In this document: positions 4,469 through 23,300 of the stretch, one piece after another | How the letters are laid out: each line of letters starts with the position of its first letter | Numbering within the stretch: position 1 is the stretch's first letter | From: a virus | Direction: 5' to 3' (one strand) | Length of the DNA: 23,374 bases | Virus record (IMG/VR): IMGVR_UViG_3300027963_000350 | Location: 1-23,374 of that record | Made by a program: the position numbers and the translations under genes | The notes under the pieces: model-generated | The model's database searches: none | What the model was told of the DNA's origin: nothing | The model's input: the letters and a program-made list of their open reading frames with translations, nothing else

Positions 4469-5794
4469 TTATAAAACTAAGTTACTACTGTATTTAAACT
4501 TTATAGGGTATTTTCCTCCCTGGTTCATTATTTTTTCTAAAGATTCTAATGTCTCCTTGCCATCTGACTTGTCAAAGTCAAATACAAAAGCATCATAAGT
4601 ATAGAGTGCTAATTTACTTTTCTTATCTTGAAGAAACATTAACACATCTTTTAATATAAGAATATTTCTTGAGGTTTCCAAGCTCTGCATCATGTAGTTC
4701 ATAAGCTTCTGCGGATGCATCTCTGGAAGGTCTTGTGTAAATCTCTTTCCTGATAACGGATCTTCTACATACCCTCTCTCTTGGTAATGCTGCCAAAGTC
4801 TATTTATATAATTCTGAATCTTCTCAAAGATTTCTAAAAAAGCATACTCAGGTGGAATCTTTCCATAAATTGCATGAAAGTTAATCTGCTTTGCTTTTGC
4901 ATATTCATCTTCGGCTATTTCATCTTTACCGAAGTAAAGTCTAGCCAATTGAACGTGAGCTGATTCATCTGTTAATTCATATCCTATTTGCTCGCATAAT
5001 AACCTTAAATGGTATCCATCGAAGTCCATTTCTACAAATACATCGTTCTGAGGAATAATAGCTTTCCTAAACTCAGGTGCTTTTGGTATTGCAGCAAAAT
5101 TTACTGAATTAAAAGCATTTGTTGGTCGAGAGGTTGTATTATAGAGATTATATGAGGTATAAATAATATTATTATCAATACTGTATACAGGATTGTTTGG
5201 TTTAAATAATTCTAGAAAGGATTGGTATGTTATTCTCAAACCAGCTCTCTCAATCATAAAGAAAACAGACGTTGCAGTTTTATTATAAAAATCAAAGCCA
5301 TTGGGTATTGCAATCTGCAATATCTTCTGTAATGACTTATAATTCTCTTCACATTTCTCAAATAACTTCGATATTGGAATTATAGCATTTATTTCTTTAA
5401 ATTCATGAAAGCGATTATAATACCAATTACAAGTTGAGTTAGATCTTGGTAATTCAAGTCTATTATAAGAAGTCATTGAATAAAGCAAGGAAAGATCTAT
5501 AACATCCTTTAGTATGAAGTGGTACATCAATTCTTTCTTATCAAACGTATAAAGTGTTGTGTATTCTTTTAATATGTCGGAGACACAATCTTTTGATAAA
5601 TTTAATCCTTCGTCATGGCTTATTGGAATAATAAATCCTTCGTGATAATCTAGAGGTCTTAAGTAAACTGCTACAGTAGTTGTGAGAAGTGGATGATAGT
5701 TATCATTTGAAGAAATGACTTCTACATACCCTCCTTTTGTACCTAAATTTTTTAGAAGCTGTATTTGCTCCTCTGTCTCTACTATATAAAACAT
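4469..5794 (-). CDS. Short family A (Pol I-like) DNA polymerase with degenerate exonuclease domain
   Basis: Predicted replicative DNA polymerase of 441 residues. The palm and fingers motifs of family A are visible. Motif A is VEMDFDGYHLRLL with the metal-binding D257. Motif B is AKQINFHAIYG with K302, F306, Y310 and G311, matching K758, F762 and Y766 of E. coli Pol I. Motif C is LYTYDAFVFDF with D401. Several usual residues differ: the steric-gate glutamate (E710) aligns with H262, R754 with Y298, and the HDE of motif C reads YDA. Residues 1-110 resemble the fold order of a 3'-5' exonuclease (FYIVETEEQIQLLKNLG, then DVIDLSLLYSM) but lack the DxE metal ligands. No 5'-nuclease domain is present; the separate rnh gene may supply it. 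A terminator lies just upstream, so it probably has its own promoter. Confidence 0.87.
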   Translation of the reverse strand: MFYIVETEEQIQLLKNLGTKGGYVEVISSNDNYHPLLTTTVAVYLRPLDYHEGFIIPISHDEGLNLSKDCVSDILKEYTTLYTFDKKELMYHFILKDVIDLSLLYSMTSYNRLELPRSNSTCNWYYNRFHEFKEINAIIPISKLFEKCEENYKSLQKILQIAIPNGFDFYNKTATSVFFMIERAGLRITYQSFLELFKPNNPVYSIDNNIIYTSYNLYNTTSRPTNAFNSVNFAAIPKAPEFRKAIIPQNDVFVEMDFDGYHLRLLCEQIGYELTDESAHVQLARLYFGKDEIAEDEYAKAKQINFHAIYGKIPPEYAFLEIFEKIQNYINRLWQHYQERGYVEDPLSGKRFTQDLPEMHPQKLMNYMMQSLETSRNILILKDVLMFLQDKKSKLALYTYDAFVFDFDKSDGKETLESLEKIMNQGGKYPIKFKYSSNLVL

Positions 5795-7445: not shown

Positions 7446-10265
7446 TTAGAAGTCGTTTACAACGTAAATTGTTTTTAAATTATTATTTTTTATAAGTCTT
7501 ACTATTTCTGTCGCTTTTGCTAAATCTAATGCAATAGTTCCGTCTTTATTTCTAGTAGAAGAAACGATTAGACATCCCTCTGACCAACCTTCACTTTTTC
7601 CTGCATGGATTCTTATTCCTGCAAAATCTAAATTACCTGGTCCATCTACATTAACTCCTGATTTATCTGTACCTATTCTAGGAGCCACTTTTCCTTTTCC
7701 ATCCCCAAAATTAACTGCAATTTTTTGAATACTTGCTTTTCCAGTAGTATCTAAAGGCATGTTATATGGAACTTTCTTTAATGACAGTGTATCAGGTATT
7801 GCAGTCTCTGCTTTTACTTTTTTTGCTCTAATAGCATCTTCTACTGTAACTGCAACAAGTTTTTGGTTGTAGTATAGCGAACCAATAGTTCTTTTTACTG
7901 TTGCAGCTTCTCTTACTAATACCAGTCCTTTATGTTGTTTTAGTACTTCTTGCGTAAATGGTTTCATTTGAGAGATAGGTCTTACAGCTCCCGATACTAC
8001 TCCTCCTGTTTCAGCACCGCTACCGCCGCTTCCACCTTCTCCGCCTCCGCCACCGCCTCCGCCACCACCACCACCACTTGGTGGGGTTCCTTTTTTACCT
8101 GCTGCTTCAACTTCAGCTGCTGATGGTGTATCAATAGGGAAAAATTGTGTTGTTACACTTGTTTCCCATCTATTATTAATATCTATAGTGTGTTCAAGTC
8201 CTGTTATTAAGTAGCAAAATCTCTCTTGGTACTTATTTGGTAATATTCCAGAAGCTATTTTAAATGCTTCCATAATTTTGAATCCACCTATACCGTCTGT
8301 TTTAAATGATAACTCTACTGGTACGATTCCTGGTAGTGGTTTGCTTTGTTGTGTTCTATGTTTCTTTACTACATTCTCTAATGTCCATTCTGCATGCATA
8401 GTTTTAGCAGTTTTCATATCCTCTTCATCATACCCACTGCCGTTAAAGTCTTCAAAGAAGGTTTTTAAAGTGTCTATCCATTTTGCTTCTCGCTTTGCTC
8501 TATCATCTTCTACAGCTTGTACTCCATCTTTATTTTTATCAGAAGTATCTTTTGTAACTTTTACTCTATCTATTACCCCTGAGTTCCATTTTAGGATGTT
8601 TTCTACATTTTCAGAATAGTTTTGTGTTGTACCTTGTGCTGCAATTGCTATCTGACTTCCTATTTCATTTGAAATTTTACTACTGATACTTACATCAGTA
8701 AAAACACTTCCAAGTCCTGCTAATGTAAAGGTTGGCATTTGTGCAATCGTGTCTGCTGGTGTATTATTTCTGTCTATAATATACCAAGTACCTCCGTTAT
8801 CTTCTTCGTCATACATTGTACCTAGGTCATTAATTCCACCTAAAGCAGAGTTAATACCTTCTAGTAGTGATTCTAATATATCAGACATACTCTTATTTAA
8901 TTTTCCATCAGCGTCAAGTGCTTGATCTAGTACTGACTTCACATAAGCTGTTGTTACTAATATGTTTAAAACATCGTCATATGTACTTCCATCTGGAAGT
9001 GTTGCCAGGCTATCGTGAATTACTGTTACAACTCCGTATCCATTTGTATCTTTATTTTGAATTACACAAACAGTAGGGTCTACTGAAAAATGTTCTTCAC
9101 TGGATAGGAATGCTGATGATTTAGAATAATCTATATTAAACTTTGCATATGCTCTATCTGAGGTATTCTCAGCTTTTGTTCCATCTATTAAAGTAACACT
9201 TGTATTAAAGACGTCTAGTAAAGTTCTTAATGGAAACCAAGTCATTGGTTGATCTTTATCCCAGAACCATCTTTCAATCTCAACTGTTGAGTAGTATGCT
9301 CCGAAGTTTTGTAACCTTGCTCCTAAAGTTGGTGACTTCGCGGTAAAGGAAAAATTTGTAAACTGTACTAACTTTACCTCATCCATTTTAGAAAGAAAGA
9401 AATGAAGTACACTTTTACGTTCTTCTTTTCCTGTTTCTGAATCTGCTTCTTCAAACTCTGCTGGATCTAGTCTAAGTTGTGGATCAAAGCGTAGTGCTAA
9501 TGATTCTAAAATTTCTCCTGTTGATATAATAGATACACTACATTCATATCCTCCATTTGGTAGATAGGTCCAGGAGAAGTTTTTACAGGACCCTATCATT
9601 CCTTCGTAATTATAACAGCTTTTTGTTCTAATGTCAGCTATACCCTTTAAAATACTTGACATAGTAACTCCGTTAGCAAAAAAACCATTAGGTATTGTTT
9701 CTATAGTTGTTATAAGAGTTCCGGTATTATCAATATACATAGAATGTCCCCACTCTAGTAGCAGTGTAAATCCCGGTCTTAGATAGAGTTTTTCCATTAA
9801 TTCAAAATCCTCTAAAGTCCAGCATGTAAATTTAACCTCTGCCTCTCTTAATGTACCTAAACTATTTTTTGATTTAACAGTCATAGAGGTAATACCTGGC
9901 ATAGGTCTTATACCTGTACTCTCTTTCCTATTATTGTAAGCTGCAGATTCATCGTAATACCCAGATGTGTTTATACCTTCTCTTAATCCTCTATTTGGAT
10001 GAAGTACACCTCCCTGTAGTATGTTATATCCTGCATCGGTACTATCTCCTTTTATATCTAACCTACCTTCTTGTATTCTAAACCTTTCTTGTTCTGCTGG
10101 TGTTATAGTATTAACCGAGGAAGATAGCCTAACAAAGGCTGTCTTACCGTTGAGGTATAGTAAATCGTCGTTAGTTTTTCCTTGAGTCTTAGATACTACA
10201 GCTTGCCTTTTTTCCATTTGAGTTGCAACTGCAGCTGAAACTGGTGATCCTATGCCTCCTGCCAT
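7446..10265 (-). CDS. Baseplate hub protein (gp27-like) fused to a C-terminal DUF5675-like domain
   Basis: A 939-residue protein with three parts. Residues 1 to about 715 look like a tail hub: the early segment GIRPMPGITSMTVKSKNSLG is followed by a hydrophobic helix-strand region, and the end of this part (VPVELSFKTDGIGGFKIMEAF ... YLITGLEHTIDINNRWET) resembles the final beta domain of gp27-type hubs. Residues about 722-752 are a linker with an unbroken run of 12 glycines. Residues about 775-939 resemble DUF5675: TIGSLYYNQKLVAVTVED, TAIPDTL, then GIRIHAGKSEGWSEGCLIVS with H887, S895, G897 and C898. The His...Ser-x-Gly-Cys arrangement also recalls L,D-transpeptidase sites, which hints at cell-wall processing during entry, but this is unproven. 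The ATG overlaps the LysM gene stop by one base (TAATG). Confidence 0.85.
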   Translation of the reverse strand: MAGGIGSPVSAAVATQMEKRQAVVSKTQGKTNDDLLYLNGKTAFVRLSSSVNTITPAEQERFRIQEGRLDIKGDSTDAGYNILQGGVLHPNRGLREGINTSGYYDESAAYNNRKESTGIRPMPGITSMTVKSKNSLGTLREAEVKFTCWTLEDFELMEKLYLRPGFTLLLEWGHSMYIDNTGTLITTIETIPNGFFANGVTMSSILKGIADIRTKSCYNYEGMIGSCKNFSWTYLPNGGYECSVSIISTGEILESLALRFDPQLRLDPAEFEEADSETGKEERKSVLHFFLSKMDEVKLVQFTNFSFTAKSPTLGARLQNFGAYYSTVEIERWFWDKDQPMTWFPLRTLLDVFNTSVTLIDGTKAENTSDRAYAKFNIDYSKSSAFLSSEEHFSVDPTVCVIQNKDTNGYGVVTVIHDSLATLPDGSTYDDVLNILVTTAYVKSVLDQALDADGKLNKSMSDILESLLEGINSALGGINDLGTMYDEEDNGGTWYIIDRNNTPADTIAQMPTFTLAGLGSVFTDVSISSKISNEIGSQIAIAAQGTTQNYSENVENILKWNSGVIDRVKVTKDTSDKNKDGVQAVEDDRAKREAKWIDTLKTFFEDFNGSGYDEEDMKTAKTMHAEWTLENVVKKHRTQQSKPLPGIVPVELSFKTDGIGGFKIMEAFKIASGILPNKYQERFCYLITGLEHTIDINNRWETSVTTQFFPIDTPSAAEVEAAGKKGTPPSGGGGGGGGGGGGEGGSGGSGAETGGVVSGAVRPISQMKPFTQEVLKQHKGLVLVREAATVKRTIGSLYYNQKLVAVTVEDAIRAKKVKAETAIPDTLSLKKVPYNMPLDTTGKASIQKIAVNFGDGKGKVAPRIGTDKSGVNVDGPGNLDFAGIRIHAGKSEGWSEGCLIVSSTRNKDGTIALDLAKATEIVRLIKNNNLKTIYVVNDF

Positions 10266-13032: not shown

Positions 13033-15828
13033 TTATTTAGATTTATATGTACCTAATACTTGTGCTTTACCTACTTTATTAGAATCCATATAAACATCCC
13101 CTCCTGCTCTTACTGCTGCAATCAGTTCTTCTAGTTTCTTTTCTACTGCTGCAAGAGATCCCTCTTCTCCTTTTCCTTTAGCTCCTCCTGCTGATTTATT
13201 TTCTCCTCCCATTCCTAGAGAAACTAAGGCTGGTGCTGCTAACGATAATGCTATTAATCCTCCTATTGCTGGTAGTGATGTAAGCCCTGCTAGAGCTACT
13301 GCTCCTAGTCCTGCTGCAATTCCAAATAAGGCCGGTCCTAGCAGTAGTAAAGGTCCAATACCTTCTGTTACTGAAGACATTAAAGTAACAAAGCCGCTTA
13401 CTATAACCGGTATTACTGATGCTATTCCTGCAAAGACTGCTGTTACTACTGTTCCAAATGCTTGAATACCTGGTGCTGCTAAATTAAGTGCATATCCTAA
13501 CCCTATTGCCGCTATTGTCAAAGCAGCTAATCCTACTGCACCAAATCCTGTCATCATAGCAGCTCCAAATGAATTTAATGCTGCTCCTAATGCTGTAAGT
13601 CCCGGTCCTGCAATGTTTCCAACTGCTGCGAGTACTCCCATTGATACTGCAAAAGCTCCTAATCCTATTGCAACATTAGTCCAATCTTTTATTTTTTCAA
13701 GTTCTTGAATTGCTTTTGCAAATATAAAAATACCTACTGCTGCTATGGCCATTGCTGCCGCTGCTTTTATTAAAGAGGTTGTATTAATTTTAGAAAAACT
13801 TTCCATCATACCTCCTCCGGCTCCGCCTCCGGTGGCTGCTGTTGATGCTGCTGCACCTGCTCCACCTGCTTTTCCTGAGAGATTAGATATCATTTTTCCT
13901 TGAGGAGAGTCTTTACTAAACAGTTTACCTGATTTAGATTTAACCATGTCTCCTGCTCCGTCTCCAAAAGCTCCTTTTAGTTTACTTATAGCTGATGTTA
14001 GTCCTCCTTTTTTAAATAAATCTGCAACCCCTAAAACGGCATCTTTACCGGCTTTGTACATTCCCCCAAATCCTTTAGCTACCCCTGTTAAACTACCTCC
14101 CAGTTTACCTACTGCTACTGCTCCAAGTAGTATGTACGGAACTAAAGGCATACTAAGTATATTTCCTATAAGATCTAGGATAGGTGCTAAAGCCCCTGCT
14201 ATTTTTTCCATTGCTGCAGCAAAGTTTTCTTGAGCATTAATTCTCTTCATATCCTCTGCATTCACCTTAGCTGCTGCTGAGGCTTGTTCTTCGGTCATTC
14301 CTGCTTCAAGTGCTTTGTTGTAAGCCATTTTTGCTAATTGATCTCTAGTCATTCCTAAAGACTTAGCGTATGCTTCTTGTGCAATTCTATTCATCTTACC
14401 GAATTCAGCAATGTCAGATGAATTTTTAAATAACTCTTTTGAAACCCCTTCTAGGTCATTATTTAAAGCAAGTTCCCTAGCTTTTTCTAAGTTAAGTTCT
14501 TTACCTGTTAATAACTCTGCTTCTAATTCGTCTGAAATAGATGATTCAAAATTTGTTAACGATCCTGCAATATTATCTACATCTTTTAATGATAGTCCAA
14601 GTCTTTGAGCTGCTGAAGCTGCTTTAGCTAATGCTTGCGGGTTATTTCCTAATGAAAGTTTTATAGATTCAGAAGTATTTGCTACTTCTCTTAATACTGC
14701 TCCTTGACTTACTGCTGCTCTATTTGCTCCATTAAATGCAGATGTCGTAGCTACTACACTCTTCACCATTCCGTCCACACTCTTACCTGAGGTTTGTGAC
14801 ATGACGGCAAGTCCTCCAGCTTCTTCAGCTGTAAGTCCCATTGTTTTCTTTAATGCTGCTGCTTGCCCTACTACCTTCTCTGAGAAGATGTTTTGAGCAT
14901 TCATACCGGTTTGCTTGGTTAGTTCACCTATTGTTTCTAGGTAATCAACTGCTGTGGCATAATTTGCTCCCCAGGAGGCGGCTGCTACTGCATTTTGTCC
15001 TGTGAGGTGTTGTACATCTACTGATGCTTTATTTATTTTAAGATATGTGTCAAAGATTTTCCCTATAACAAATTCAGGTTGCATTAACCCGTCTGCAAAT
15101 ATCTTAGCTGATCCTGCAGCAGCTTTACCCATGTATTGAAACTTAAGTGCTACAGTGTTTACATCATTACCTGCCTTCTTAATTTCTTCCCTTAACTCAT
15201 CTTTAAGTTTTGTGTTTAACTCATCTATCTCAGATGACATATGCCCAAACCCTAATGCACCAAGTAATTTATTAGTACTTGTAAGTAATGCACCAGTTGC
15301 TCCAACGGTTTTCTCTACTTTTTCTTCAAGTTCTAGACGTTTCTCAAGTTCTTTTAAAGCTTCTTTTTCTATAGCATACCCAGCTCTTCTAGCTTTGAGC
15401 ATTGCTTTTCCTGCTTCTGTTCTTCTTTCTTCTGCAGAAAGTGCCTGTACATTTCGTCTTAGATCATCAAAACTTATTTTTGCTTTTTCTTGTAGAGCCT
15501 TTAATTGCTTAGTATTAAATCCGTAAATACCTTGCTCTTCGTTTTTAAGCTTTTCTACAACAGATGTTAATCCCTGATATCCTTTCTTTGAGATACTTAA
15601 AGCAGTGTTTTGCTTTGACATTTCTGCAAGATTGGCTCTTAAGATAGAGGTAAGGTCAGTGAATGTAGTGTTTATTTCAGCTGCAGTGGCTTGAAGTCCT
15701 TTTAATGCTTCTTGGGCTTTTCCAAGCTCGTTTGCATTGAAAGGTGTTTCCATCTTTTTACCTAATTGCGCTCTTAGATCGGCAATTTGCTTATTAAGTT
15801 TATCTATATCTTGCGATTGATTTGGCAT
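13033..15828 (-). CDS. Tail tape measure protein
   Basis: A 931-residue protein expected to fix tail length and leave with the DNA during infection. The N-terminal part is coiled-coil-like and highly charged (IDKLNKQIADLRAQLGKK, then long Lys/Glu-rich helices to about residue 180). The middle is helical and alanine-rich (QAAALKKTMGLTAEEAGGLA). From about residue 545 onward several hydrophobic helices appear (LVPYILLGAVAVGKLGG, AAAAMAIAAVGIFIFAKAI, then a long Gly/Ala/Ile-rich stretch), which could insert in the inner membrane. No lysozyme or peptidase motif is visible. T4 gp29 is 590 residues; if length scales with tail length, this tail would be longer than that of T4. Position after the chaperone-like pair supports the call. 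Confidence 0.92.
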   Translation of the reverse strand: MPNQSQDIDKLNKQIADLRAQLGKKMETPFNANELGKAQEALKGLQATAAEINTTFTDLTSILRANLAEMSKQNTALSISKKGYQGLTSVVEKLKNEEQGIYGFNTKQLKALQEKAKISFDDLRRNVQALSAEERRTEAGKAMLKARRAGYAIEKEALKELEKRLELEEKVEKTVGATGALLTSTNKLLGALGFGHMSSEIDELNTKLKDELREEIKKAGNDVNTVALKFQYMGKAAAGSAKIFADGLMQPEFVIGKIFDTYLKINKASVDVQHLTGQNAVAAASWGANYATAVDYLETIGELTKQTGMNAQNIFSEKVVGQAAALKKTMGLTAEEAGGLAVMSQTSGKSVDGMVKSVVATTSAFNGANRAAVSQGAVLREVANTSESIKLSLGNNPQALAKAASAAQRLGLSLKDVDNIAGSLTNFESSISDELEAELLTGKELNLEKARELALNNDLEGVSKELFKNSSDIAEFGKMNRIAQEAYAKSLGMTRDQLAKMAYNKALEAGMTEEQASAAAKVNAEDMKRINAQENFAAAMEKIAGALAPILDLIGNILSMPLVPYILLGAVAVGKLGGSLTGVAKGFGGMYKAGKDAVLGVADLFKKGGLTSAISKLKGAFGDGAGDMVKSKSGKLFSKDSPQGKMISNLSGKAGGAGAAASTAATGGGAGGGMMESFSKINTTSLIKAAAAMAIAAVGIFIFAKAIQELEKIKDWTNVAIGLGAFAVSMGVLAAVGNIAGPGLTALGAALNSFGAAMMTGFGAVGLAALTIAAIGLGYALNLAAPGIQAFGTVVTAVFAGIASVIPVIVSGFVTLMSSVTEGIGPLLLLGPALFGIAAGLGAVALAGLTSLPAIGGLIALSLAAPALVSLGMGGENKSAGGAKGKGEEGSLAAVEKKLEELIAAVRAGGDVYMDSNKVGKAQVLGTYKSK

Positions 15829-15854: not shown

Positions 15855-15867
15855 GTTAAAGCTTCTA

Positions 15868-16155
15868 TTATCTAGAAGCTTTTGTACTATAATCAGGTGC
15901 TTTAATATGTCCATTTTGTAATACATTACTTTGTCCTGATGCTTTTTGTTGTGCTTTATTTTCACTTTCGTAATACTCAATCATACTTCTATGTACAAAT
16001 TTTCTTAACCATATAGGAAATTCGTAAACTGTCTCAAAAGAGTACCCTCCTTTCCCGTGAAATACTATATCATGGAGTTGATTAAAAAGGCTTCCTCTAT
16101 ACTCCGGCGTCAGGCCAAAGAAATGTAACCCCGATAGGAATATCAACCCCTCCAT
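15868..16155 (-). CDS. Second tail-assembly chaperone frame, 95 aa, overlapping the gp26-like gene
   Basis: A 95-codon frame (ATG at 16155) that overlaps the last 59 bases of the gp26-like gene. It contains FFGLTPEYRGSLFNQLHDIV and YEFPIWLRKFVHRSMIEYYE; the FPIWLRKF segment resembles a Y-x-x-(M/F)-P-(I/V)-x-L-R-x-F signature I associate with small tail-assembly proteins of T4-like phages, from memory. The C-terminal 25 residues are polar. In many phages the frame between the tube gene and the tape measure is read by ribosomal frameshifting to extend the first chaperone. It could also be translated independently from its ATG, which has no Shine-Dalgarno but neither do its neighbours. Both modes are plausible. 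Confidence 0.75.
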   Translation of the reverse strand: MEGLIFLSGLHFFGLTPEYRGSLFNQLHDIVFHGKGGYSFETVYEFPIWLRKFVHRSMIEYYESENKAQQKASGQSNVLQNGHIKAPDYSTKASR

Positions 16156-16837
16156 CTGGTCCGTCTTCTGGGAAGAATTTTAAATCAACATCTGGTTGAA
16201 TTTGATTTATATACTCTCTTAAAGCTCTAGAATCTCTTGCTAATAGGAAATTATCAACAAAATCTCTAATTGTCTTAGTTTCTGAATTTCCTTCAACTGA
16301 GGTAATCATTCTTTTAAGTCTTGTTGTAAGTTCTGCTGAAGAGTCTTTATGTATCTTTTTTAGACCTTTTACTTCCTGTTCTATTGCTTTTTCATCTCCA
16401 TGTGTTAGTAATTTAAAAGTAATATCTGTCTTTGTAGAAGGAGTTGTAAATGTAAATTCATTTTTTCCTTTTTCTAATAAAGAAAAATCAATTTCTTTAT
16501 TTTTTACTTCTGAAAGGTCTACTACTTCTTTTTGTCCTTTATACTCAAACTCATAGTCTTTTCCATATCCTAAAATACGGGAAGCAAGTAATATTGCATT
16601 TTTATCTCCTATTAGAAGATCTGAGTAAGTAATTGGTGTTACGATAAGAGATTGTAGTAATTTATCAATAACTACTCCTTGTTGAATGTAATTTTGATTG
16701 GTTAAAATGTCTTCTTCACGAGCTGTCATATACTTCATCTCAATTCTACCTTCTGATAAAGCAGAATCTTTTGAGTAAAGTAAACCTTTTGATGGCAATT
16801 CTACCATTTCGGTAGGAAATTTTTGCTTTTGTTCCAT
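16097..16837 (-). CDS. 26: T4 gp26-like tail assembly/baseplate protein (probable first tail-assembly chaperone)
   Basis: A 246-residue protein with the features of the T4 baseplate protein family (PF12322, gp26-like): FPTEMVELPSKGLLYS at the N-terminus, then EMKYMTAREEDILTNQNYI and KLLQSLIVTPITYSDLLIGD. Its C-terminal third holds charged helices and DFVDNFLLARDSRALREYI. T4 gp26 is 208 residues. In T4 genes 26 and 51 precede the tail genes 27-29; here the gene lies between tube and tape measure, the standard place of the tail-assembly chaperone that binds the tape measure. Its last 59 bases overlap the 95-aa frame, offset by +1 (equivalent to -2). It follows a terminator and a TATTTATA motif, so it probably starts a new transcription unit. 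Confidence 0.82.
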   Translation of the reverse strand: MEQKQKFPTEMVELPSKGLLYSKDSALSEGRIEMKYMTAREEDILTNQNYIQQGVVIDKLLQSLIVTPITYSDLLIGDKNAILLASRILGYGKDYEFEYKGQKEVVDLSEVKNKEIDFSLLEKGKNEFTFTTPSTKTDITFKLLTHGDEKAIEQEVKGLKKIHKDSSAELTTRLKRMITSVEGNSETKTIRDFVDNFLLARDSRALREYINQIQPDVDLKFFPEDGPDGGVDIPIGVTFLWPDAGV

Positions 16838-16902: not shown

Positions 16903-16924
16903 AAGCCCGGCTACTGCCAGGCTT
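16903..16924 (-). terminator. Intrinsic terminator after the sheath-tube unit
   Basis: In the minus-strand RNA, AAGCCTGGC and GCCGGGCTT form a 9-bp stem with the loop AGTA, followed by TGTTGTTTT. It begins 22 bases after the tube stop. As in the terminator at 5822-5847, the one G-U wobble would be an A-C mismatch in the other strand's RNA, so it favours leftward transcription. Confidence 0.85.
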
Positions 16925-16946: not shown

Positions 16947-17435
16947 TTAGTAATTTAATACACAATAATCCATTGCAATTGAAATTCCTATTTCTACAAT
17001 TCCATCAGCAGAAGTCCAGTCGAATTGTCCAAAGTCTCCTTTTGTTAAAAAAGCTCCTTTAATAATCCATTCTCCTACTACATCTCCTACAGGTCCTAGA
17101 ATGTTTAAAGTTAAATCTTTTTTATAGAAATCTGAATATCCAGCTCTACCTGTTACTGATTCATATCCTAGACGAGCCCATTCCATTACTGCTTGAGCCC
17201 CTGAAGGTGTTATCGGTGAGTATAGAGTCATATCCATATCTTGCCACTCTCTTTTTCCTCTTATTTTTCTGTAAGAGTTGATGTGGTCAAGTTTGATCAT
17301 AGAATCTTGAAAGTTTGGTGCTTTCACATTCTTAACCATGAATGAAGGGATATTATCTATATACATTACAAACCTGTGCTGAACCATTGGTTCAAAGGCT
17401 CTAAACATTATTTCGTTTGGATCTAATACTGCCAT
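16947..17435 (-). CDS. 19: Tail tube protein (gp19-like)
   Basis: Major tail tube protein of 162 residues, nearly the length of T4 gp19 (163). It begins with MAVLDPNEIMFRAFEPMVQH and RFVMYIDNIPSFMVKNVKAP, then HINSYRKIRGKREWQDMDMT and YSPITPSGAQAVMEWARLG, an order typical of contractile-tail tube subunits. The C-terminal part (LNILGPVGDVVGEWIIKGAF, then the ISIAMDYCVLNY end) provides the late strands of the tube fold. It stacks in hexameric rings inside the sheath. It lies directly downstream of the sheath gene with a 43-base gap carrying a TATTTATAAT motif, and a strong terminator follows, as suits an abundantly made protein. Confidence 0.95.
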   Translation of the reverse strand: MAVLDPNEIMFRAFEPMVQHRFVMYIDNIPSFMVKNVKAPNFQDSMIKLDHINSYRKIRGKREWQDMDMTLYSPITPSGAQAVMEWARLGYESVTGRAGYSDFYKKDLTLNILGPVGDVVGEWIIKGAFLTKGDFGQFDWTSADGIVEIGISIAMDYCVLNY

Positions 17436-17478: not shown

Positions 17479-19245
17479 TTATGCAAACGTAGCTCCTGTT
17501 GGTTCAATTGTAAAGTCTAATACTACGAATTCAATTGTTTTAGCTGGTTGAATGTAGATTTGTCCTATCAATTGATTTCTATCAATAGTATCAGGTGTGT
17601 TGTTTGATTCGTCCATTACAACTCTATATGCATATAGACCTTGACGTTGTACTACTGACTCTAAGTATGGATTTACTGTCGCTAAGAATTTATTTCTAGT
17701 AGTAATAGTGTTTTGTTCGAATACTAAGTTTCTTGCTTGGTCACCAATAAATTTCTTAAGAGCGATTAACAATCTTCTTACATTTACTCTATCTAATGCT
17801 GATGCTTTAGTCTGTAATGTTTTTTGTCCAAATACTGATATACCTGTTCCTGGGAAAGAAGCAATTGGGTTAACTTTTGCTGCATAAAGAATATCTCTAT
17901 CGTTTTTAGTTAATTTTCTTTCTGCTTGAATTACTCCTGAAATTCCTCCTCTTACAAGTCCTGCTGGTGCAAACCATGGTGCTGTTGCTGCATCTGTAAA
18001 TGCATATACTCCTGGTATTGTAACTCCTGCTGGTACCCATTCGTTCTTACCTGTGGCAGATCTCATTTGTAACCATGGCCAGTAAGATGCTCCGTAAGAA
18101 GTATTTAAGTTAGTTGATTCAGCTATTGTATTAGATACTGATGTTCCGTAGTTTACTAGGTCTACTACTGCGATACAATCTCCTCTATTTTCTGCTAAAG
18201 AAATTACACTGTCAATTGCTAAAGCTGCATTATCATTTGCATAGATTAATCCTGGTGTAGATATAATATTGAATTGATAATCATCTTTGTTTTGAAGCAA
18301 GCCTATTGCTTTTGTGTAATCTGCTGCTATTAATCCTTGTGCATTATTATCTGTAATATCTGCAAAAAGTCTAGCACCTGGCTTAACTTTTCCATTTGCT
18401 CCGTAGAATGAACCTGAACCTGTTATCGGTAATGATCCTGAGTAAGAAACTCCTGCGCTGTCTACATTAACAGTAACTCCGTTATTTCCTATATAGTTTA
18501 AGGTAGGTAGATTAACTGCTGATACTCTTACAAAATTTGATCTGTTTGGATAGTTTCCTGTTGATTGTAAGTAGTAAGTACTTCCGTCTGTACCAACACT
18601 AGTTGTTTGGTTACCTACAATTTTTTCAATATAGTTATCAGAGTTTGGATCTAAAGATACATTATTAAATGTTTCTAGAATAACTTTGTTATTTGAACTA
18701 TCATCTCCTTGTCTAATTAACAAGTTAAATGTACCTCGAGCATTGTTAACTCCTACTACCTCCCATCTTAAATTATCCGAAGATCCAGATACTAGTGATC
18801 CGTCTGTGTTTAGGTAACTTCCTGTACTGCCTGGTAACCCTGCTATAGAAGATGTTGCATTATTGTACAAGTCTCCTTGTCCTAAGGTTTTTAATTCAAA
18901 TGGCTGTAGTGCTTTGACTGATGCTGATATAAAGGTATTAGTTGCAGCTGTATAATTTACTGAAGCTGATACAACTCTAGTAATTAATGCTGTCTGTCCT
19001 CCTTGAGAAAAATAATTTTTAACAGCTAGTGAAGTTAAGAACTCATATGAATTTGAGCCTGAAGAAAATACAACTCCAAACTTTCTTACATAGTCGTTAT
19101 AAGAAGTAACAATTGTCGGGTTTTCTATAGGACCTTTTACTGTTGGTCCAATAAATGCTGCTCCTGCTGCGATTGGTGCTGGCTGTATAAAAGAGATATC
19201 ATTTTCTCTTGTATATACTCCTGGAGAAATAATTGCTTCTGCCAT
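17479..19245 (-). CDS. 18: Contractile tail sheath protein (gp18-like)
   Basis: Sheath subunit of 588 residues (T4 gp18 is 659). The N-terminus is MAEAIISPGVYTRENDISF, the classic opening of sheath proteins, followed by AAFIGPTVKGPIENPTIVTS and YFSQGGQTALITRVV. The variable outer domain (about 110-300) is rich in Ser, Asn and Gly. The conserved C-terminal part contains GDCIAVVDLVNYG, WPWLQMRSATGKNEWVPAG, APAGLVRGGISGV, FGQKTLQTKASALDRVNVRR and a final IYIQPAKTIEFVVLDFTIE strand that interlocks neighbours. The contracted sheath drives the tube through the envelope. Preceded by a motif and a hairpin in a 142-base gap, and followed by the tube gene. Confidence 0.96.
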   Translation of the reverse strand: MAEAIISPGVYTRENDISFIQPAPIAAGAAFIGPTVKGPIENPTIVTSYNDYVRKFGVVFSSGSNSYEFLTSLAVKNYFSQGGQTALITRVVSASVNYTAATNTFISASVKALQPFELKTLGQGDLYNNATSSIAGLPGSTGSYLNTDGSLVSGSSDNLRWEVVGVNNARGTFNLLIRQGDDSSNNKVILETFNNVSLDPNSDNYIEKIVGNQTTSVGTDGSTYYLQSTGNYPNRSNFVRVSAVNLPTLNYIGNNGVTVNVDSAGVSYSGSLPITGSGSFYGANGKVKPGARLFADITDNNAQGLIAADYTKAIGLLQNKDDYQFNIISTPGLIYANDNAALAIDSVISLAENRGDCIAVVDLVNYGTSVSNTIAESTNLNTSYGASYWPWLQMRSATGKNEWVPAGVTIPGVYAFTDAATAPWFAPAGLVRGGISGVIQAERKLTKNDRDILYAAKVNPIASFPGTGISVFGQKTLQTKASALDRVNVRRLLIALKKFIGDQARNLVFEQNTITTRNKFLATVNPYLESVVQRQGLYAYRVVMDESNNTPDTIDRNQLIGQIYIQPAKTIEFVVLDFTIEPTGATFA

Positions 19246-20335: not shown

Positions 20336-23300
20336 TTAATCTAATAATTCCATTGTTCGTGGTTGGTTTGATAAAAATGATCCTGATGTTCCTGTTGGAT
20401 CTATATTTCCGTTTGGTAGTATTTTTACATATCCTGAAACTGCTGAACCTGAATAGGAAGTAAAGTCTCCTCCTGCTACGTGTATATTTCCTAAATTGTC
20501 TACAACTATTTTACTGCTTAAGGAGTTAAAATTATTAAATCCTGAACCTGGGTTAAAAGTTGTATCTATACTGCCGTTGGTATTTAACCTTACTAGTCTG
20601 TTTACCCCTGAAGATCCTGAATATTGAGTAAAGTCACCTGCGGCAATTAGCTTGTTATCAGGTTGAAGTGCAGTTTTAATAACAGGTCCACTAAATCCTG
20701 GTCCTACAATATACGTATAATCTAAGTTTCCATTAGCATCTATTTTAGCTATATTTTCTTTTTCAGCTCCAGAGTAAAGCTGGAAAACTCCAGTTAATAT
20801 TGAAGAGTCGTCAGGTAAAGTGTTTATATTGAAAACAGGTCCATTTATTTGATTTTGAAGGAAAGTTCCATCAACAGTTAAGTTCGAGTTAAGTCTTAAT
20901 AGGTATCCAGGAGTTGTAGGAGTGTCCTGGTCATATGTTCCGCCTTCACCGTCATCGTAGGTAACTACTGCATTAGACTGAAAATCTCCTCCTATAAGAA
21001 CTTTACCGGTGGATTGTACTTGCATTGAGTAAATAGTATACCAAATGTATTGACCGCCACTACCAAATAGTCCATTTGAGTTAAATCTCCATGGGTTGGT
21101 TGTTGGAGAATATGGACTTGAATATCCTGCAAGAATTTGTCCATCTGATTGTGCAGTAAGTGTCTGTACAGTTCCGTTTCCAGTATAACTGCTTGTAGCA
21201 AGTAAGTTTCCTTGTTGACTTATCTTAAATAAATCTGAGGTGAAGGATGATCCTGAGTAGTATTGTGGATATTGACTTGAATTAAGCCAAATATCACCTG
21301 AGGTATTTTTTACTGAAGCAGCTGGTATACCTGATAGTTGATTTGTTGATGTATTTAAAAAACCTGTACCAGGATTAAATAAACTGCTAGTATTATTTGA
21401 CGAACTTTCAAAAGCTACTATACCGTTGTTATTTTGTTTAAAGACTGTAAATGGGCTTTGTCCTAGTAGAAATATATTATTTAAACTGTCTTTAGCTAAT
21501 GAAGTTACAGCAGGAGTTCCTGATGTTCCTTGTACTGTAATTCCATTAGCATCAAGACTACCGCTTGATAGGTATTTAAAATATCTATAAGGGTTGGAGT
21601 TTGGATAATGAAGAACATGAATAGAACCTGAATTGTCTATTAATAATTTCTCTGTATTTCCACTTAAAGAATTTACTCCTTGAGTAATATTAAAAGAAGT
21701 ATCTTGTGAACCGCTTGGATTAATTCTTACTATGTAGTAATTACCTGAACCTGAATATGAGCTAAAGCCTCCTCCTACGACTATCTTACCGTCATTTTGG
21801 AGTTGTAGGTCATATATACTACCAATAAATCCTGCTCCTTGATTAAAAGAAGTATCTTTTGAACCGTTTGAATTAATTCTTACCATATATAGGTTAGAAG
21901 AACCTGAGTATGTTGAAAAGGTTCCTCCTGCTAAAATTTTACCATCTGGTTGAATTTTTAAAGACCTTACAACATCTGATGTACTACTAAATCCGCTTAG
22001 CCCTACATTAAATGAACTATCTGCAGTTCCATCTTCATTCAATCTTAATATTCCATTATACCGAAAAGGGTAGGTTGTAAACTCTCCTCCAGTATAAATA
22101 CCTCCACTACTGTCCACTACTATTGCACGAACTGTTCCGCTATATCCATTATAGAATGAAGAACCTGTTATAATAGATCCGCTTGGAGATATTTTTACAA
22201 AATAATTTACTGTTGACCCTGAATAGGTTAGAAAATTACTCCCAACATATATGTTCCCGCTTGAATCTAATTCTAAAGCACTTGGTACAGCCCCAACAGA
22301 ATCAAATCCAGTTCCTACATTAAATGTAAGATCTCTTGTACCATCGGTATTTATTCTTGTTATTCTATTTACTGCAGAACTTGAATAGGAAGTAAATGCT
22401 CCCATTGCTATTATTTTTTGATCTGGTTGTATTTTTATATTAGTTACCCCTCCTCCGAAAAATCCTGCTGTTCCAATATTAAAAGAAGTATCTTTTGTTC
22501 CATTAGCATTTAATCTTACAATTGCAGGATTAGATGAACCTGAGTATGAGGCGAAATTTCCTCCTACTATTATTTTGTCATCTGCCTGTACTTGTATTTT
22601 ATAAACTGTAGAACTAAATCCTACTAGACCTTGTTGAAAGGTTGGGTCTAGTGTTCCATTTGTATTTAGTCTTGCAATATAGTTTGCATTCCTATAATTA
22701 CCGGTGAAAGTCCCAGCGTATACACTTGTATCACTATTTACTAGTATCGAAAAGACTTGACTGGTAAATCCTGATGCGCTAGGTGCACTGACGAATCCTG
22801 GAGTTCCTGGTGCTATTGAACCACTTGGAGATATTCTTACAAAATAATTTACTTGAGAACCTGAGTATGTGGTAAAGGTGCTTCCAGCATATATATTTCC
22901 AGTTGAATCTAATTCTAAAGCAGCTGGTTGGCCTGTTGCAGTATCAAATCCAGTTCCTACATTAAATGTAAGATCTCTTGTACCGTTTGGGTTTATTCTT
23001 GTTATTCTGTTTACAGCCGAACCTGAGTATGAGGTAAATGATCCCATTACAACTATTTTTTGATCAGGTTGTATTATAGCTCTATAGGTTGTATTATTAA
23101 GTCCTGCTGTTCCAATATTAAAAGTTGTATCCAAAGTACCATTTGTATTTATACGTCTAATTCTCTGTGCTGCTGAACCTGAATAAGTAGCATTTAATCC
23201 TACAACTATAATTTTCCCATCATTTTGAATTTGAGCGCTGTATTGATTTGCAGAAAATCCTGTTGTCCCCATATTGAAGGTGAAATCTTTTGTACCATCT

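What the first reader, a model, noticed from the sequence alone, without database searches (positions are those of the whole stretch)
16097..16155. Tail-assembly chaperone overlap with possible +1 (or -2) programmed frameshift
The gp26-like gene and the 95-aa frame overlap by 59 bp, offset by +1/-2, exactly between tube and tape measure, where many phages make a G/GT-type pair by frameshifting. The overlap contains two in-frame GGG G runs (GGA GGG GTT and ATC GGG GTT), each letting a glycine tRNA re-pair perfectly after a +1 slip. TTT C further on is a third option. Known chaperone frameshifts are mostly -1, with -2 in Mu-like phages and +1 rare, so this could be an unusual case in the T4 lineage. 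The mechanism is inference.
Basis: partly seen in the sequence, partly recalled or inferred. Interest (0 to 1): 0.65.

Follow-up and report, generated by a model that had tools for sequence, protein, structure and literature searches.

The report
Phage tail chaperone using +1 frameshift
A Flavobacterium-type phage appears to make two forms of a tail-building helper protein by having some ribosomes skip one base at a fixed spot, and a large family of related phages keeps that trick while T4-like cousins appear to slip one base backwards at the same place.

Summary
The overlap is real. The 95-aa frame is almost certainly not a separate gene but the C-terminal part of a tail-assembly chaperone, reached from the gp26-like gene by a shift into the +1 frame. 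All 132 distinct relatives counted in the window's clade, plus 24 in an SP-15-like sister group, hold the C-terminal domain at the same +1 offset. The ATG at 16155 is not conserved: 76/132 have no ATG in that frame and 35/132 no ATG/GTG/TTG.

In 19 relatives a +1-frame stop lies directly upstream, and gp26 can end 18 nt after the site starts, so the shift is confined to about 20 nt. The base before this TTT is never T in 132 loci (56 expected). Cyanophage, KVP40 and jumbo-phage relatives have T_TTT_TTC there, with the domain in the -1 frame.

The predicted gp26 fold's best PDB match is the HK97 tail assembly chaperone (weak). The tRNA mechanism, efficiency and products are inferred; there is no protein evidence.

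The parts
16097..16837 (-). gp26-like ORF, 246 aa: short form (TAC-N / gpG-like) of the tail-assembly chaperone
   Evidence: phrog_150 2.8e-8; relatives match PF12322; predicted fold, pLDDT 91.6, best PDB match HK97 tail assembly chaperone
16120..16123 (-). Proposed slip site TTT_C: P-site Phe codon TTT (16123-16121) and the next base C (16120); re-pairing on TTC
   Evidence: codon TTT in 129/132 relatives (TTC_TTT_T in the other 3), always followed by T or C; +1-frame stop directly upstream in 19 loci
16112..16123 (-). Nearly invariant block TTT CTT TGG CCT around and after the slip site
   Evidence: codon counts in 132 loci; CCT 131/132 against 33% of Pro codons elsewhere
16124..16124 (-). 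Base before the slip codon: never T in the +1 clade, T in the -1 relatives where the heptamer was located
   Evidence: 0/132 against 56 expected; -1 clade AGT/TCT/GGT/GAT/CAT/AAT
15868..16119 (-). C-terminal domain (T-like), 83 codons and stop, read in the +1 frame after the slip; fused product 322 aa
   Evidence: homologous domain at +1 in 132 + 24 loci; FFGL conserved from the slip site on
15868..16155 (-).
   Evidence: ATG replaced by ACG in relatives about 91% identical (L007); no ATG in 76/132
16097..16123 (-). Dual-coding stretch: gp26 C-terminus in frame 0, start of the T domain in frame +1
16903..16924 (-). Terminator-like hairpin between the tube gene and the chaperone gene
   Evidence: consensus match only
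15858..15882 (-). Terminator-like hairpin just after the T-domain stop
   Evidence: consensus match only
16947..17435 (-). Tail tube gene (context)
   Evidence: PF06841, phrog_4542
13033..15828 (-). Tape-measure-like ORF, 931 aa (context)
   Evidence: position; the ORF in the same place in phage immuto is annotated tail tape measure protein

Best explanation
The two ORFs encode one tail-assembly chaperone in two lengths. Most ribosomes read the gp26-like frame to the TAG at 16099-16097 and make the 246-aa short form. A fraction slip one base forward with tRNA-Phe in the P site on UUU_C (16123-16120), re-pair on UUC, and continue in the +1 frame to make a 322-aa form that carries an extra helical C-terminal domain. 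As in the lambda gpG/gpGT model, the common part would coat the tape measure protein and the extra domain would recruit tube subunits. Shown here: the conserved +1 offset, no conserved start codon, confinement of the shift to about 20 nt, nucleotide-level conservation of the site, and relation to the T4 gp26/gp51 family. Inferred: the tRNA movement, direction +1 rather than -2, the efficiency, and the chaperone function.
For: T-domain at +1 in all 132 distinct loci counted in the clade and in 24 SP-15-like loci. No ATG in 76/132 and no NTG in 35/132 in the +1 frame. +1-frame stops directly upstream of the TTT in 19 loci and gp26 ends as early as 18 nt after it. TTT 129/132, CCT 131/132 against 33% elsewhere, base before never T. 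+1-frame FFGL conserved from the site on. T domains of +1 and -1 groups homologous, and T4 gp51 carries one. Fold resembles HK97 tail assembly chaperone and YqbN. UUU_C +1 slippage is experimentally known elsewhere (PMC3498833).
Against: No protein or reporter evidence. No stimulator was found: the downstream fold is a 4-bp hairpin without covariation, and the A-site codon CTT is not obviously slow. L169 breaks the frame rule. Four SP-15-like loci (L194, L198, L199, L204) lack TTT_Y. Fold matches are weak (E 0.31; Z 4-5).
Confidence: 0.82

Rival explanations
1. The +1 frameshift happens at the GGG_G runs, with glycine tRNA re-pairing.
For: The window has two in-frame GGG_G runs and its +1 frame is open from there.
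Against: In-frame GGG_G is absent in 71/132 relatives and blocked by a +1 stop in 12 more; no aa conservation of the +1 frame before FFGL.
Confidence: 0.03
2. The 95-aa protein is translated separately from the ATG at 16155 or another internal start (translational coupling).
For: The window has an ATG preceded by purine-rich sequence; 40/132 loci have an NTG with an SD-like stretch; in the -1 relatives 73/80 cyanophage-like loci have an ATG at +11, and LR756511 has TAATG.
Against: No start position is shared; 35/132 have no NTG at all up to 60 nt past the site; ATG 16155 is ACG in close relatives; conservation of the +1 frame begins at the TTT, not at a start codon.
Confidence: 0.06
3. The frame is reached by -2 slippage at codon 2 rather than +1 at codon 1.
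For: The resulting frame is the same, and TTT TTT would allow re-pairing; -2 is known in Mu (PMC5009743).
Against: Three clade members with TTC TTT and several SP-15-like loci with TTC TTT CGT would have to re-pair on TCT; -2 predicts no pressure for codon 1 to be followed by a pyrimidine beyond the coding need.
Confidence: 0.07
4. +1 slippage at codon 2 (CTT_T or TTT_T), resembling the RF2 CUU_U slip.
For: CTT_T re-pairs on TTT as in RF2 (PMC10885494); 43 loci have CTT TGG.
Against: Codon 2 is CTA in L034, L035 and L085; codon 1 is held at TTT although TTC would be silent.
Confidence: 0.1
5. RNA polymerase slippage on a T run, or sequencing errors, create the apparent frame change.
For: 83 loci of the clade have a run of 7 or more T.
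Against: The window and 45 other loci have TTTCTTT or TTTCTA, with no run longer than three T, yet the same offset; the same offset in 156 sequences excludes error.
Confidence: 0.02

Closest known systems
Lambda gpG/gpGT and the widespread tail-assembly-chaperone frameshift (Xu, Hendrix & Duda 2004; reviewed in PMC5009743)
   Same: Position between tube and tape measure genes; short and long product; C domain without its own start
   Different: Lambda shifts -1; here +1 on UUU_Y. The short form belongs to the T4 gp26 family, not to the lambda gpG family by sequence
T4 gp26 and gp51 (PF12322), chaperones of T4-like phages (Vladimirov, Gautam & Davidson 2022, title and citations only)
   Same: Same protein family; gp51 is an in-frame N+C form and gp26 an N form
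   Different: T4 uses two genes, not one shifted mRNA
Poly-T -1 chaperone sites (cyanophage S-SM2, KVP40, PA5oct here; GTTTTT in Vandenendeviridae, PMC12846349)
   Same: Phe-Phe codons at the C-terminus of the short form; homologous C domain for the former group
   Different: -1 frame and T before TTT; in cyanophages and KVP40 a separate ATG is also available
UUU_C +1 class: influenza PA-X UCC_UUU_CGU and plant amalgavirus UUU_CGN (PMC3498833, PMC5052127)
   Same: P-site Phe codon UUU followed by C; several SP-15-like members have UUU_CGU itself
   Different: Eukaryotic viruses; the window has UUU_CUU, without a CGN A-site codon
Listeria phage PSA tail gene and haloarchaeal HSTV-2 (PMC5009743)
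   Same: +1 direction in tail genes
   Different: Listeria sites are at proline codons and extend the major tail protein; the HSTV-2 site was not compared here

Membership tests
Tail-assembly chaperone with programmed frameshift (G/GT type) | Gene pair between tube and tape measure genes | tested here: met
Tail-assembly chaperone with programmed frameshift (G/GT type) | Second frame overlaps the first, has no conserved start and keeps one offset across relatives | tested here: met
   +1 in 132 + 24 loci; no NTG in 35/132, no ATG in 76/132
Tail-assembly chaperone with programmed frameshift (G/GT type) | Conserved slippery site | tested here: met
   TTT_Y in all 132 loci of the clade; 20 of 24 SP-15-like
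Tail-assembly chaperone with programmed frameshift (G/GT type) | Chaperone fold | tested here: inconclusive
   2ob9 (HK97 chaperone) first PDB match, E 0.31, prob 0.82, Z 4.3; 3klu YqbN Z 5.2
Tail-assembly chaperone with programmed frameshift (G/GT type) | Both products made at a set ratio, binding tape measure and tube protein | not testable with these tools
   needs mass spectra and binding assays
T4 gp26/gp51 family (PF12322 / phrog_150) | Profile match | tested here: met
   window protein phrog_150 2.8e-8; it does not reach PF12322 itself, but relatives L085 and SP-15 do (56.8 and 100.4 bits, cut-off 24.5)
UUU_C +1 frameshift class (PA-X type) | UUU in the P site followed by C | tested here: met
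   16123-16120 in the window
UUU_C +1 frameshift class (PA-X type) | CGN codon in the A site | tested here: not met
   window has CTT; CGN occurs in the SP-15-like group
[quoted passage not shown]
   CTT is followed by TGG, not a stop; the triplet before TTT CTT varies (ACA, AAC, AGC...)

The most novel reading that the evidence does not exclude
In the T4 gp26 chaperone family the direction of programmed frameshifting has switched at one homologous Phe-Phe codon pair. A T before the pair gives T_TTT_TTC and -1; its strict exclusion leaves UUU_Y and +1, so one base largely sets the direction. The +1 form is fixed across a large clade (Flavobacterium immuto-like, Microcystis Mel-JY01, Bacillus SP-15, jumbo LR756508), which makes it a bacterial counterpart of the UUU_CGN class and an alternative to T4's two-gene solution.
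Probability: 0.6. Interest if true: 0.72.

Novelty: new variant of a known kind. Interest (0 to 1): 0.6.

Why it matters
The G-to-GT frameshift was reviewed as conserved in long-tailed phages 'except T4' (PMC5009743). Here relatives of the T4 chaperone appear joined to their C domain by a shift, -1 in some lineages and +1 in others at the same codons. That is a natural experiment on what sets frameshift direction. It also explains a recurrent annotation error: in immuto and SP-15 the domain appears as a truncated 36-39 aa 'hypothetical protein', and in LIS04 it is missing. Whether the 2022 paper on T4-like chaperones already covers the +1 group could not be checked.

Tried and rejected
GGG_G sites: not conserved. 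Internal ATG 16155: not conserved. Downstream RNA structure: only a 4-bp hairpin without covariation. Pfam for the T domain: nothing useful. Solved structures by sequence: none for gp26 or T4 gp51. Fold search with the T domain alone: no useful match. L188 was first scored as -1, but its junction frame is +1 with an indel inside the domain. L169 remains an exception: its T domain is in the -1 frame and its stretch from TGG to the gp26-type TAG is 7 nt longer than usual (28 against 21 nt). tRNA genes in the window: none. The key prior paper (Vladimirov 2022) is not held.

Full report
What is in the sequence. On the minus strand the order is sheath (17479-19245), tube (16947-17435), gp26-like ORF (16097-16837), a 95-aa ORF (15868-16155) and a 931-aa tape-measure-like ORF (13033-15828). 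The closest cultured relative is Flavobacterium phage immuto (160 kb, 82% identity in this protein); the large ORF that follows there is annotated tail tape measure protein.

Comparison. A scan of viral contigs gave 80 loci. Two further scans with family alignments, one with the cyanophage protein and one of bacterial genomes, gave more. After removing identical junctions there are 243. A profile of the downstream domain assigns its frame without ambiguity in each. The window's clade has 132 distinct loci at +1, the SP-15/SagM-like group 24 at +1, and cyanophages, KVP40, Atu_ph07, PA5oct and RAS14 are at -1. The cultured +1 members are immuto, Microcystis phage Mel-JY01, Streptococcus phage SagM-GXN1, Bacillus phage SP-15 and Listeria phage LIS04, plus the uncultured jumbo genome LR756508.

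No independent start. The ATG at 16155 is ACG in relatives about 91% identical (L007). From the last +1-frame stop to 60 nt beyond the site, 76/132 loci have no ATG and 35/132 have no ATG, GTG or TTG. Annotators of immuto and SP-15 placed a 36-39 aa ORF that starts inside the domain, and in LIS04 the domain is unannotated.

Where the frame changes. Take codon 1 as the TTT at 16123-16121. In 19 loci a +1-frame stop lies directly upstream (the open +1 frame begins 2 nt before codon 1), and gp26 can end as early as 18 nt after codon 1 starts. All loci can share one site only inside that interval. There the block is TTT (129; TTC 3), TTT/CTT/CTA, TGG/TAC/TTC, CCT (131; CCA 1). CCT makes up 33% of proline codons elsewhere in these genes; its T is the middle base of the +1-frame leucine in FFGL, which is at least 90% conserved, so the +1 frame is already being read at codon 4. 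The shift is therefore at codons 1-3, and pairing favours 1 or 2. Codon 1 is preferred because it stays TTT although TTC would be silent, and because CTA at codon 2 (L034, L035, L085) leaves poor pairing after a slip there. The three TTC loci carry TTT_T at codon 2. The common rule is a TTT followed by a pyrimidine. Sequence counts are not independent, but in 47 representatives below 60% identity the numbers are TTT 46, CCT 47 and non-T before the site 47.

Direction. The base before codon 1 is never T in the +1 clade; codon usage predicts 56 of 132. In the -1 relatives where the heptamer was located, the codon before TTT TTC always ends in T (AGT, TCT, GGT, GAT, CAT, AAT), making T_TTT_TTC. 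In the cyanophage-like group 78/80 have the heptamer and 73/80 also an ATG at +11, so there a separate start is possible. On the careful gp26 tree all +1 members fall in one clade (support 89/62) that also holds L169, with the other -1 lineages outside it. A single change fits, but which state is older is not resolved.

The GGG_G hypothesis. An in-frame GGG_G within 39 nt upstream is missing in 71/132, and in 12 more a +1 stop follows it, so 83/132 have no usable run. It cannot be the conserved mechanism.

What the protein is. The window protein matches phrog_150 at 2.8e-8; relatives match PF12322, the family that holds both T4 gp26 and T4 gp51. The downstream domains of the +1, SP-15-like and -1 groups are homologous (HMM E-values down to 1e-12, HHalign 95-97%), and T4 gp51 is matched by the -1 group model at 6.6e-07. 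The predicted gp26 structure (pLDDT 91.6) has the HK97 tail assembly chaperone as first PDB match (E 0.31, prob 0.82), with YqbN first in the second look. These matches are weak, but agree with position and family. The downstream domain is predicted as three helices.

Mechanism. [quoted passage not shown] The window site UUU_CUU has the same P-site logic without the CGN codon; several SP-15-like members have UUU_CGU itself. No stimulator was identified: the downstream fold is a 4-bp hairpin without covariation. Terminator-like hairpins flank the pair (16903-16924 and 15858-15882), consistent with one transcription unit, but they are only consensus matches. Efficiency is unknown. Slippage by -2 is less likely because loci with TTC TTT would have to re-pair on TCT.

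Exceptions. L169 has its domain in the -1 frame; its stretch between TGG and the gp26-type TAG is longer than in relatives, and a real variant cannot be told from an assembly fault. L188 reads +1 at the junction but is broken inside the domain. L194, L198, L199 and L204 lack TTT_Y and share CCC AGT, possibly a move to a proline slip.

Prior knowledge. Forms with -1, -2 and +1 of the tail chaperone shift are on record, +1 being rare (HSTV-2), and T4 is named as the exception (PMC5009743). [quoted passage not shown] title and citations only), and poly-T -1 sites are cited from it. What appears new here is the large +1 group within this family, the UUU_Y site, and the opposite rule for the preceding base. 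Since that paper could not be read, the claim of novelty is limited to 'not found in the papers searched'.

Noticed in passing
L194, L198, L199, L204 (SP-15-like group), codons before the gp26 stop: These lack TTT followed by a pyrimidine but share TTT/TTC AAT CCC AGT; the slip may have moved to CCC_A, as in the Listeria PSA proline sites.
   Followed up: no
L084, L176-L178, L180, L184-L186, L191, L192, L195, L201, L202: SP-15-like relatives carry TTT_CGT at the homologous place, the same tetramer and A-site codon as influenza PA-X.
   Followed up: partly
L169, gp26 stop region: Only relative in the clade with the C domain in the -1 frame; the stretch after the slip site is 7 nt longer than usual.
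   Followed up: partly
L086 (LR756511 jumbo phage), gp26 stop: The downstream domain starts at an ATG overlapping the gp26 stop (TAATG), a start-codon-based solution in the same family.
   Followed up: partly
L082 6854-6964; L087 4821-4940; L088 4730-4959: GenBank annotation of immuto and SP-15 gives the C domain as a 36-39 aa ORF from an internal ATG; in LIS04 it is unannotated.
   Followed up: yes
window 7446-10265 (-): 939-aa ORF with a poly-glycine stretch and a C-terminal DUF5675 domain (PF18925 1.6e-08) in the baseplate/hub region.
   Followed up: no
window 20336-23272 (-): 978-aa ORF with 11 DUF5122 beta-propeller repeats next to the tail genes; possibly a fibre or adhesin.
   Followed up: no
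window 4469-5794 (-): 441-aa ORF matching family A DNA polymerase (PF00476) in a phage that also has gp32-like and RecA-like proteins.
   Followed up: no
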